Source: Chromatiales bacterium
GTDB lineage: Bacteria > Pseudomonadota > Gammaproteobacteria > RBG-16-57-12
Direction of reading: 5' to 3'
NCBI GenBank assembly: GCA_026989455.1
Contig: JALSJH010000040.1
Coordinates: forward strand, 1-42,907
Length of the DNA: 42,907 nucleotides
In this document: one piece after another, positions 25,256 to 27,079 of the stretch
Layout of the letters: every line of letters starts with the position of its first letter
Position numbering within the stretch: position 1 is the stretch's first letter
Translations under genes and position numbers: made by a program
The notes under the pieces: generated by a model
Told to the model about the DNA's origin: nothing
Databases searched by the model: none
Seen by the model: the letters and a program-made list of their open reading frames with translations, nothing else

Positions 25256-26470
25256 ATGGCTGCATTTGAATATTTAGCAGTGGATGAAGCAGGCCGTGAG
25301 CAGAAAGGGGTGCTGGAGGGTGATGCGCCCCGCCAAATCCGCCAGCAGCTGCGAGAAAAGGGCTGGATGCCGCTCGAGGTGAACGCGGTTAAGCAAAAGG
25401 TGCATCGCCGTGGCTTTAGTTTGAGTCGCCCCTCACGTATCTCGAATAATGATCTGGCGATGATTACCCGTCAATTGGCGACACTGATTCGTTCCGGGGT
25501 GCCGGTTGAAGAGTCCTTGCGTATCGCTTCGCAACAGGCCAGCAAGGGGCGCTCTCAATCGGTATTGGTGGCGATCCGCTCCCGAGTGCTCGAGGGACAT
25601 GGATTGGCCGCTGGCATGAGCGAGTTTCCACAAATCTTCTCAGAAATGTACCGGGCAACGGTTGCCGCAGGCGAACAGTCTGGACACCTAGAGCTGGTGT
25701 TAGAACGCTTGGCTGACTATGCCGAAGGTGCCTTGCAGGTAGGGCAGAAGATGATGTTGGCGCTGATCTATCCCCTAGCGCTCACACTGGTGGCTCTGGG
25801 AGCCATTATGTTTCTGACCGCTTATGTGGTGCCGCAGGTGGTAGAGGTGTTTGAGGGGCTTGATAAAGCGCTCCCCCCCCTGACCATTGCGGTGATCTGG
25901 GCGAGTGATGTGATTCGCGGCTACTGGCTGATGATGCTAGTCACCCTTCTGTTGGGTGTCGCAGGTTTCAAATACCTGCTGCGTATGCTCTCCTTTCGCC
26001 GTCAGTTTCACCATATCTTGCTGCGTATTCCAGTGATTTCGAAAGTTTTAAAAGGGGTCGATGCTTCACGCTTTGCGCGTACCTTCGGTACACTACTGGG
26101 CGCGGGCGTGCCTGCGCTAGAGGCAATGAATATTTCGGCCCAAGTAATGTCTAATATCCCAATGCGTGATGCGATACAAAAAGGTGCGAGAAAACTGCGT
26201 GAAGGAGCGAGCCTACAAGTGGCACTGGGTACCGGCGGTTATTTTCCGCCCATCATGCTGCACCTAGTCGCCAGTGGTGAGGCGAGTGGCAATGTGGAAG
26301 AGATGCTGTTTCGTTCGGCTGAAACCCTGGAGCGTGAGTTGGATACACTGCGCGGCACCCTATTAGGCCTTATGGAACCGCTGATTATTTTGTTAATGGG
26401 TGGCTTGGTGATGGTGATTGTAATGGCGATATTGATGCCGATTCTTGATCTTAATCAGCTTATTCAATAA
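25256..26470 (+). CDS. gspF: Type II secretion system inner-membrane protein GspF
   Basis: GspF is the polytopic platform protein that contacts GspE and GspL. The 404-residue product has the two repeated cytoplasmic T2SSF domains: the first around ITRQLATLIRSGVPVEESL, the second around FARTFGTLLGAGVPALEAM. Three membrane segments are visible, near 165-195, 215-240 and 375-400. It begins four bases after gspE. A 168-base structured spacer follows before gspG. Confidence 0.96.
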   Translation: MAAFEYLAVDEAGREQKGVLEGDAPRQIRQQLREKGWMPLEVNAVKQKVHRRGFSLSRPSRISNNDLAMITRQLATLIRSGVPVEESLRIASQQASKGRSQSVLVAIRSRVLEGHGLAAGMSEFPQIFSEMYRATVAAGEQSGHLELVLERLADYAEGALQVGQKMMLALIYPLALTLVALGAIMFLTAYVVPQVVEVFEGLDKALPPLTIAVIWASDVIRGYWLMMLVTLLLGVAGFKYLLRMLSFRRQFHHILLRIPVISKVLKGVDASRFARTFGTLLGAGVPALEAMNISAQVMSNIPMRDAIQKGARKLREGASLQVALGTGGYFPPIMLHLVASGEASGNVEEMLFRSAETLERELDTLRGTLLGLMEPLIILLMGGLVMVIVMAILMPILDLNQLIQ

Positions 26471-26501
26471 TCATAGTCACTATTCAGCGTGTTTAAATTT
26501 G

Positions 26502-26590
26502 GCCTCAAACTGAGGCACTTTTGCACGCAAAGAGGGAACACATAGGGAATATGTGGCCGATTGAGTGCGAAAATAACGAAGAGTTGAGGC
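26502..26590 (+). promoter_or_regulatory. nested RNA fold in the gspF-gspG spacer
   Basis: Three nested pairings are visible: GCCTCAAACT (26502-26511) with AGTTGAGGC (26582-26590), TTTTGCAC (26519-26526) with GTGCGAAAA (26565-26573), and a perfect hairpin CACATA (26539-26544) with TATGTG (26550-26555). In competition with the outer stem, GCCTCA (26502-26507) can pair locally with TGAGGC (26511-26516). It could adjust the higher expression needed for the major pseudopilin GspG, or be a relic mobile repeat. The function is not known. Confidence 0.5.
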
Positions 26591-26638
26591 AAAAGATGAA
26601 TACACTGAGTAGATTACTAATCAACTTAGGAGTGATAT

Positions 26639-27079
26639 ATGTACGTTGAAAAGAAGCAGCAGCGTGGCTTCACGTTGATAGAACTGATTGTGGTTATCGT
26701 TATTCTTGGGGTACTGGCCACTATTGTAGTCCCCAAGGTGATGGATCGCCCCGATGATGCGCGTATTGCAAAAGCAAAGCAGGATATTCGAGCACTACAG
26801 ACCGCGCTGGATCTGTATAAACTGGATAACTACACCCACCCCAGTACGGACCAGGGGCTAGAAGCGCTGGTGAATAAACCGGCCGGTTCTCCTGCACCTA
26901 AAAATTGGAAAAGTGGCGGCTATCTGGATCGCCTGCCAAAAGATCCGTGGGGCAATGAATATTTCTATCTGAAGCCCGGTAGCCGTGGGGGTGCAGTGGA
27001 TATCTATTCATTGGGTGCTGATGGTCGTCAGGGGGGCGAAGGTGCGGATGCGGATGTGGGTAATTGGGAGTCAAAATAA
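26639..27079 (+). CDS. gspG: Major pseudopilin GspG
   Basis: GspG builds the shaft of the periplasmic pseudopilus. The 146-residue precursor has a 9-residue leader (MYVEKKQQR then G) cut before [20 protein letters not shown], with the +5 Glu, followed by the globular domain with the family's calcium-site region near [16 protein letters not shown] and [21 protein letters not shown] lies before the ATG. Cleavage and N-methylation need a prepilin peptidase, which is not encoded in this window. Confidence 0.97.

What the first reader, a model, noticed from the sequence alone, without database searches (positions are those of the whole stretch)
26502..26590. Nested and mutually exclusive RNA pairings ahead of the major pseudopilin gene
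Three nested stems cover ~90 bases, and the outer left arm GCCTCA can instead pair locally with TGAGGC. Such alternatives are a hallmark of switches or of mobile hairpin elements. The rest of the gsp operon is packed with overlaps, so this 168-base gap is exceptional.
Basis: partly seen in the sequence, partly recalled or inferred. Interest (0 to 1): 0.6.

Follow-up and report, generated by a model that had tools for sequence, protein, structure and literature searches.

The report
IS66-type MITE inserted before gspG
The odd gap between two secretion genes is one of about 60 copies of a short, hairpin-forming jumping DNA element that borrows an IS66-type transposase; it is not a gene switch, although the element's one-sided, co-evolving hairpin is unusual enough to merit study.

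Summary
The three nested stems are the inner part of one 142-bp imperfect palindrome (window 26476-26617, MFE -50.6 kcal/mol, z -8.5). It is one of about 59 copies in this 2.37-Mb draft genome. Copies end in GTAACTAYTCAGCGTRTTYA and are flanked by 8-bp target-site duplications (80% identity against 32% shuffled; 7 and 9 bp near background). Both available congeners carry the empty site, so the normal gspF-gspG spacer is about 20 bp. The same ends bound a complete IS66-family element in Methyloprofundus and match published ISDge4 ends. It is therefore a MITE of the IS66/ISBst12 type, seen in many gammaproteobacterial MAGs. The nested stems covary strongly across lineages; the 'mutually exclusive' GCCTCA/TGAGGC pairing does not. 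The hairpin is far stronger on one strand: shared variants favour G-U over A-C, new mutations do not. That fits a fold kept while elements propagate, not one maintained at each insertion site. Any effect on gspG is untested. MITEs are a known kind; this family appears undescribed.

The parts
26468..26475 (+). left target-site duplication TAATCATA; its first three bases are the gspF stop codon
   Evidence: 6 of 8 match to 26618-26625; 8 bp is the duplication length in 41 copies; single copy TAATCAAC at the empty site of congener G002
26476..26617 (+). the MITE, 142 bp, whole
   Evidence: covariance model 133 bits, E 1.1e-27 in the window; about 59 copies in the genome
26476..26508 (+). left terminal inverted repeat and outer left arm (GTCACTATTCAGCGTGTTTAAATTTGGCCTCAA)
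   Evidence: consensus GTAACTATTCAGCGTGTTTAGATTTTGCCTCAA; pairs with 26584-26617
26584..26617 (+). right terminal inverted repeat and outer right arm
   Evidence: consensus TTGAGGCAAAAGATGAATACGCTGAGTAGTTAC
26519..26526 (+). middle stem, left arm TTTTGCAC
   Evidence: pairs with 26565-26573; covaries across lineages (helix 3)
26565..26573 (+). middle stem, right arm GTGCGAAAA
26539..26555 (+). apical hairpin CACATA-GGGAA-TATGTG
   Evidence: consensus CATATAGGGAATATG, with CCTATAGGGAATAGG as a compensated variant
26502..26516 (+). local alternative hairpin GCCTCA-AAC-TGAGGC
   Evidence: present, but no covariation in 36 own or 40 cross-lineage copies
26618..26625 (+). right target-site duplication TAATCAAC; start of the ancestral gspG leader
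   Evidence: identical to the empty site in G002
26626..26638 (+). remaining gspG leader with its Shine-Dalgarno-like TTAGGAG, preserved
25256..26470 (+). gspF
   Evidence: PF00482 T2SSF, E 2.1e-55
26639..27079 (+). gspG, major pseudopilin
   Evidence: PF08334 T2SSG, E 5.4e-42

Best explanation
The gspF-gspG gap is a single insertion of a 142-bp non-autonomous transposable element (MITE) whose ends belong to the ISBst12 (single-ORF) group of the IS66 family. Shown: multi-copy, shared ends, 8-bp target duplication, empty sites, and the same ends on IS66 elements carrying a DDE transposase. Inferred: an IS66-type TnpC acted on the ends in trans, and the insertion landed just after the gspF stop codon, adding 150 bp (142 + 8) to an 18-bp spacer and leaving the gspG leader intact. 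The long hairpin is the element's own conserved feature. It covaries between lineages and is far stronger on one strand, so it was probably maintained while elements propagated, as RNA or as single-stranded DNA. In the operon it is presumably transcribed between gspF and gspG, where the likeliest consequence (untested) is an inert or mildly processed or stabilising hairpin, not ligand-controlled switching.
For: Copies: 40 BLAST matches, 81-90% identity apart from the window itself; covariance model about 59 distinct places, 54 near full length and 5 of 66-90 bp. Target duplication: identity of left and right flank 0.80 for 8 bp against 0.32 shuffled, with 7 bp (0.44) and 9 bp (0.37) near background. 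Empty sites: G002 CAATAATCAACTTAGG and G001 CAATAATCGACTTAGG. IS66 link: Methyloprofundus MAG L212 933-2471, 1539 bp, both ends GTAACTACTCAGCGTA, one 477-aa ORF with PF03050 at E 8e-46; L143, a PF03050 fragment whose stop codon lies inside an exact terminal repeat; published ISDge4 (ISBst12 group) ends GTGACTACTCAGCA / GTAACTGCTCAGCA with an 8-bp repeat (PMC12898284). Structure: in 40 cross-lineage copies 95.6% of cells paired, 15 of 35 pairs with two-sided changes, 0 of 500 shuffles as high. Strand: mean MFE -53.2 against -37.2 (own) and -57.7 against -41.1 (others), plus strand more stable in 100 of 103.
Against: No IS66 transposase is found in this genome, so the mobilising enzyme must be lost, missing from the draft assembly, or acted in an ancestor. 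The complete Methyloprofundus element has no matching 8-bp flanks. The window copy's own duplication is only 6 of 8. No expression data bear on what the hairpin does here.
Confidence: 0.93

Rival explanations
1. A cis-regulatory RNA switch for gspG in which GCCTCA pairs either with the distal TTGAGGC or with the adjacent TGAGGC.
For: Both pairings can form in the window copy; the gap sits directly ahead of the major pseudopilin gene.
Against: No covariation of the alternative in own or cross-lineage copies; its closing pair is absent in 29 of 36 own copies; congeners lack the sequence; no Rfam match; no promoter found on this strand and no U-tract terminator at the hairpin.
Confidence: 0.03
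2. A MITE that has been co-opted in place: transcribed between gspF and gspG, the hairpin is cleaved or protects the downstream mRNA and raises gspG relative to gspEF, as ERIC elements are reported to change the relative stability of flanking transcripts in Yersinia.
For: Inserted in the strand orientation that folds best; gspG leader intact; ERIC precedent (PMC2229807); GspG is the major pseudopilin (general knowledge).
Against: The copy carries 15 changes from consensus and its hairpin (-50.6) lies within 1 SD of randomly mutated consensus (-43.8, sd 7.8), so no sign of local preservation. Several outer pairs are lost. Copies are not significantly oriented with host genes (17 co-directional against 10, naive ORFs).
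Confidence: 0.15
3. A REP/BIME-type or tyrosine-transposase (IS200/IS605-like) hairpin element rather than an IS66-type MITE.
For: A strand-asymmetric hairpin is typical of elements moved as single-stranded DNA.
Against: Clean 8-bp duplications and long terminal inverted repeats shared with DDE IS66 elements; HUH enzymes make no such target duplications (general knowledge).
Confidence: 0.02

Closest known systems
IS66 family, ISBst12 group (e.g. ISDge4 of Deinococcus geothermalis, PMC12898284)
   Same: Terminal repeats nearly identical over 14 nt (GTGACTACTCAGCA / GTAACTGCTCAGCA against GTAACTACTCAGCG); 8-bp target duplication; relatives found here carry a single PF03050 ORF.
   Different: The window element is 142 bp, non-coding and cannot encode a transposase; no IS66 transposase is found in its genome.
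Bacterial MITEs: ERIC, Correia/NEMIS, RUP, CIR (review PMC2229807)
   Same: Under 200 bp, terminal inverted repeats, target duplications, mainly intergenic, transcripts fold into long stem-loops.
   Different: The review reports TA at the termini of most bacterial MITEs; this one has GTAAC ends and 8-bp duplications. Most of those families had no identified parent IS in that review; here the parent family is identified.
Structured RNA families (Rfam)
   Same: A long hairpin with cross-lineage covariation on one strand.
   Different: No Rfam family matches; it is dispersed by transposition and not tied to any gene.

Membership tests
MITE | short, multi-copy, no coding capacity | tested here: met
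   142 bp; about 59 places in the genome; no ORF of at least 90 aa within it
MITE | terminal inverted repeats | tested here: met
   GTAACTAYTCAGCGTRTTYA at both ends
MITE | target-site duplication of constant length | tested here: met
   8 bp, sharply; in the pooled set 62 of 133 copies have 8 of 8
MITE | empty sites in relatives | tested here: met
   G002 and G001 at gspF-gspG
MITE | ends shared with an autonomous transposon | tested here: met
   L212 complete element and L143 fragment; in other genomes, not this one
IS66 family, ISBst12 group (as mobiliser) | single-ORF DDE (PF03050) transposase bounded by these ends | tested here: met
   477 aa, E 8e-46, between matching ends in Methyloprofundus
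IS66 family, ISBst12 group (as mobiliser) | such a transposase present in the same genome | tested here: not met
   no PF03050 match in G000; draft assembly of 116 contigs
IS66 family, ISBst12 group (as mobiliser) | TnpC moves the MITE in trans | not testable with these tools
   needs a transposition assay
Riboswitch / RNA thermometer | two mutually exclusive pairings both conserved | tested here: not met
   alternative pairing: 64-78% of cells paired, no more than shuffles
Riboswitch / RNA thermometer | conserved association with the regulated gene | tested here: not met
   absent at gspF-gspG in both congeners; copies at many other loci
Riboswitch / RNA thermometer | known aptamer family | tested here: not met

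The most novel reading that the evidence does not exclude
The element's persistence depends on the fold of one specific strand, as transcribed RNA or single-stranded DNA. Across lineages the stems covary, the plus strand folds much better than the minus strand, and shared variants favour G-U over A-C pairs, while singleton changes do not. If so, this is a DDE-type MITE whose propagation, and not its resident copies, is under structural selection on one strand.
Probability: 0.35. Interest if true: 0.62.

Novelty: new member of a known kind. Interest (0 to 1): 0.4.

Why it matters
It explains a puzzling operon gap as a recent insertion and warns against calling riboswitches from single-genome hairpins. 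It also adds a widespread, apparently undescribed family of IS66-type MITEs in uncultured Gammaproteobacteria. The covarying, one-strand hairpin makes a question testable: does a DDE transposon derivative need a folded strand to propagate, or does template switching in the palindrome mimic such selection?

Tried and rejected
Rfam at gathering and relaxed thresholds: only chance hits (MicA 15 bits, queA 12.5 bits). Promoter/terminator scan: nothing on this strand at the hairpin. IS66 transposase in own genome: none. G001 C147 IS66 (L092): a different subgroup without these ends. L082 and L084 single end matches: no transposase beside them. L101 pair of ends 2100 bp apart: ordinary host genes inside, flanks do not match. 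Orientation of copies relative to host genes: 17 co-directional against 10, not significant, naive ORF calling. Test for local preservation of the window hairpin: none found. Plasmid and phage collections: no match. Literature: the end sequence occurs in no held paper; ISBst12 is named in three.

Full report
What was claimed and whether it is there. The predicted fold is far more stable than dinucleotide shuffles: 168-nt gap -53.3 kcal/mol, z -6.1; exact element -50.6, z -8.5. The stretch was drawn too narrowly: an outer 29-nt imperfect inverted repeat (26480-26508 / 26584-26612) belongs to the same palindrome. The gap is exceptional in an otherwise tightly packed gsp operon.

What it is. Searching the window's own genome with the gap returned 40 matches spread over the contigs, 81-90% identical apart from the window itself. 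A covariance model finds about 59 distinct places: 54 near full length and 5 internally deleted copies of 66-90 bp (my count of distinct places in its table). Aligned with flanks, similarity stops sharply at GTAAC...GTTAC. In 41 copies the 8 bases left of the element match the 8 bases right of it at 80% of positions, against 32% when flanks are shuffled; 7 and 9 bases are near background. The element in the window is 26476-26617, with TAATCATA at 26468-26475 and TAATCAAC at 26618-26625.

The insertion. Both available congeners lack it. G002 reads TTCAATAATCAACTTAGGAAAGGCATATG and G001 TCCAATAATCGACTTAGGAAGTGTGACTATG, with gspF ending in the TAA and gspG following. The ancestral spacer is 18 bp in G002; 18 + 142 + 8 = 168, exactly the window's gap. 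GspF is 98% identical to G002's at protein level, with 75% identity at third codon positions, so the insertion post-dates that split (or was lost precisely in both congeners, which is less likely).

Who moves it. In the pooled set of 138 elements most are 140-142 bp, and 62 of 133 with full flanks have a perfect 8-bp duplication. In a Methyloprofundus MAG the same ends bound a 1539-bp element with one 477-aa ORF matching the IS66 DDE transposase, E 8e-46. In a Lysobacterales MAG an IS66 transposase fragment ends with its stop codon inside an exact copy of the terminal repeat. The ISBst12 group member ISDge4 is published with ends GTGACTACTCAGCA / GTAACTGCTCAGCA and an 8-bp repeat (PMC12898284). 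That an IS66-type TnpC mobilised this element is therefore well supported by homology of ends, but not shown: the window's genome has no IS66 transposase in its draft assembly, and the complete Methyloprofundus copy lacks matching flanks.

Distribution. A sample of 369 genomes of the class gave 61 with a model match at E <= 0.001; nine of them, in six families, reach E <= 1e-20 (my count). The weaker matches may include other palindromic elements. The pattern is patchy and dense where present, as expected of a mobile element.

Structure. The nested stems covary across lineages: 40 copies, 35 pairs, 95.6% of cells paired, 15 pairs with changes on both sides, no shuffle as high and slid registers far lower. 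The same holds more weakly among own copies. The alternative local hairpin shows nothing beyond shuffles.

One-strand fold. The plus strand folds better than the minus strand in 100 of 103 copies (own -53.2 against -37.2, others -57.7 against -41.1 kcal/mol), with DNA parameters too, and RNAalifold on own copies gives -28.2 against -4.3. Because a structure derived on one strand favours that strand, I also counted on the union of structures from both strands: variants seen three or more times are 11 G-U to 3 A-C (own) and 9 to 2 (others), while singletons are 15 to 13 and 6 to 9. Own-copy singletons fall about equally on paired and unpaired columns (0.49 and 0.42 per column). My reading (inference): the fold is maintained in the lineages that keep transposing, and copies decay without structural constraint after insertion. 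An alternative without selection is correction by template switching inside the palindrome; it would produce two-sided changes, but it does not obviously produce the strand bias. The counts are not phylogenetically corrected.

Function at gspF-gspG. Nothing indicates that this copy has been recruited. It has 15 departures from consensus, and its stability is within one standard deviation of randomly mutated consensus. Since the gspG leader is intact, the insertion is probably tolerated. ERIC elements between co-transcribed genes are reported to destabilise the upstream transcript in an orientation-dependent way (PMC2229807), so a side effect on gspF/gspG mRNA is possible and testable.

Novelty. 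MITEs, including hairpin-forming ones, are a known kind, and IS66 is a known family. I found no description of this family: the end sequence is in no held paper and ISBst12 is named in only three, but the held library omits most subscription papers. It is ordinary as an explanation of the gap, and moderately interesting as a widespread element with a one-strand, covarying hairpin.

Noticed in passing
G000:C14:23557-23623, C80:9513-9579, C35:8116-8183, C93:21066-21131, C75:5871-5960: Short (66-90 bp) versions of the element span the whole model from end to end, so they look internally deleted with both ends kept.
   Followed up: no
L088:2875-3054 and L089:2984-3145 (G055); L113:6947-7111 (Methylomonas MAG); L098/L139 (SI039_bin4): Elements of 162-213 bp with the same terminal repeats but apparently unrelated interiors, most also folding better on one strand: several MITE subfamilies may share one mobiliser.
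   Followed up: partly
L185:5632-5833, L190:6252-6453, L155:3128-3321 and others (MAG BB4 and relatives): Longer copies (about 160-200 bp) carry recurring extra hairpin-like modules (e.g. CCCTTTATGGGCGCCACAGGCGTTGTG) inserted in the arms of the same core.
   Followed up: no
L192:7373-7538 (Candidatus Tharpella aukensis), L161 (Chitinispirillaceae): The ends also occur in MAGs not named as Gammaproteobacteria; L192 holds a 166-bp element with a perfect 8-bp duplication.
   Followed up: no
G001 contigs C15, C22, C40, C143, C27, C48, C149: Near-identical copies of the element sit at contig ends, so it probably breaks the assembly and moved recently in this congener.
   Followed up: partly
L083:2982-3296 (G001:C128): A 92-aa ORF resembling part of an IS66 transposase (weak tblastn match to L143) lies just inside a terminal repeat GTAACTATTCAGCG: a possible decayed mobiliser in the congener. 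It has no Pfam match of its own.
   Followed up: partly
L092 (G001:C147): An intact IS66 transposase with accessory ORFs of a different type, possibly from a contaminating contig.
   Followed up: no
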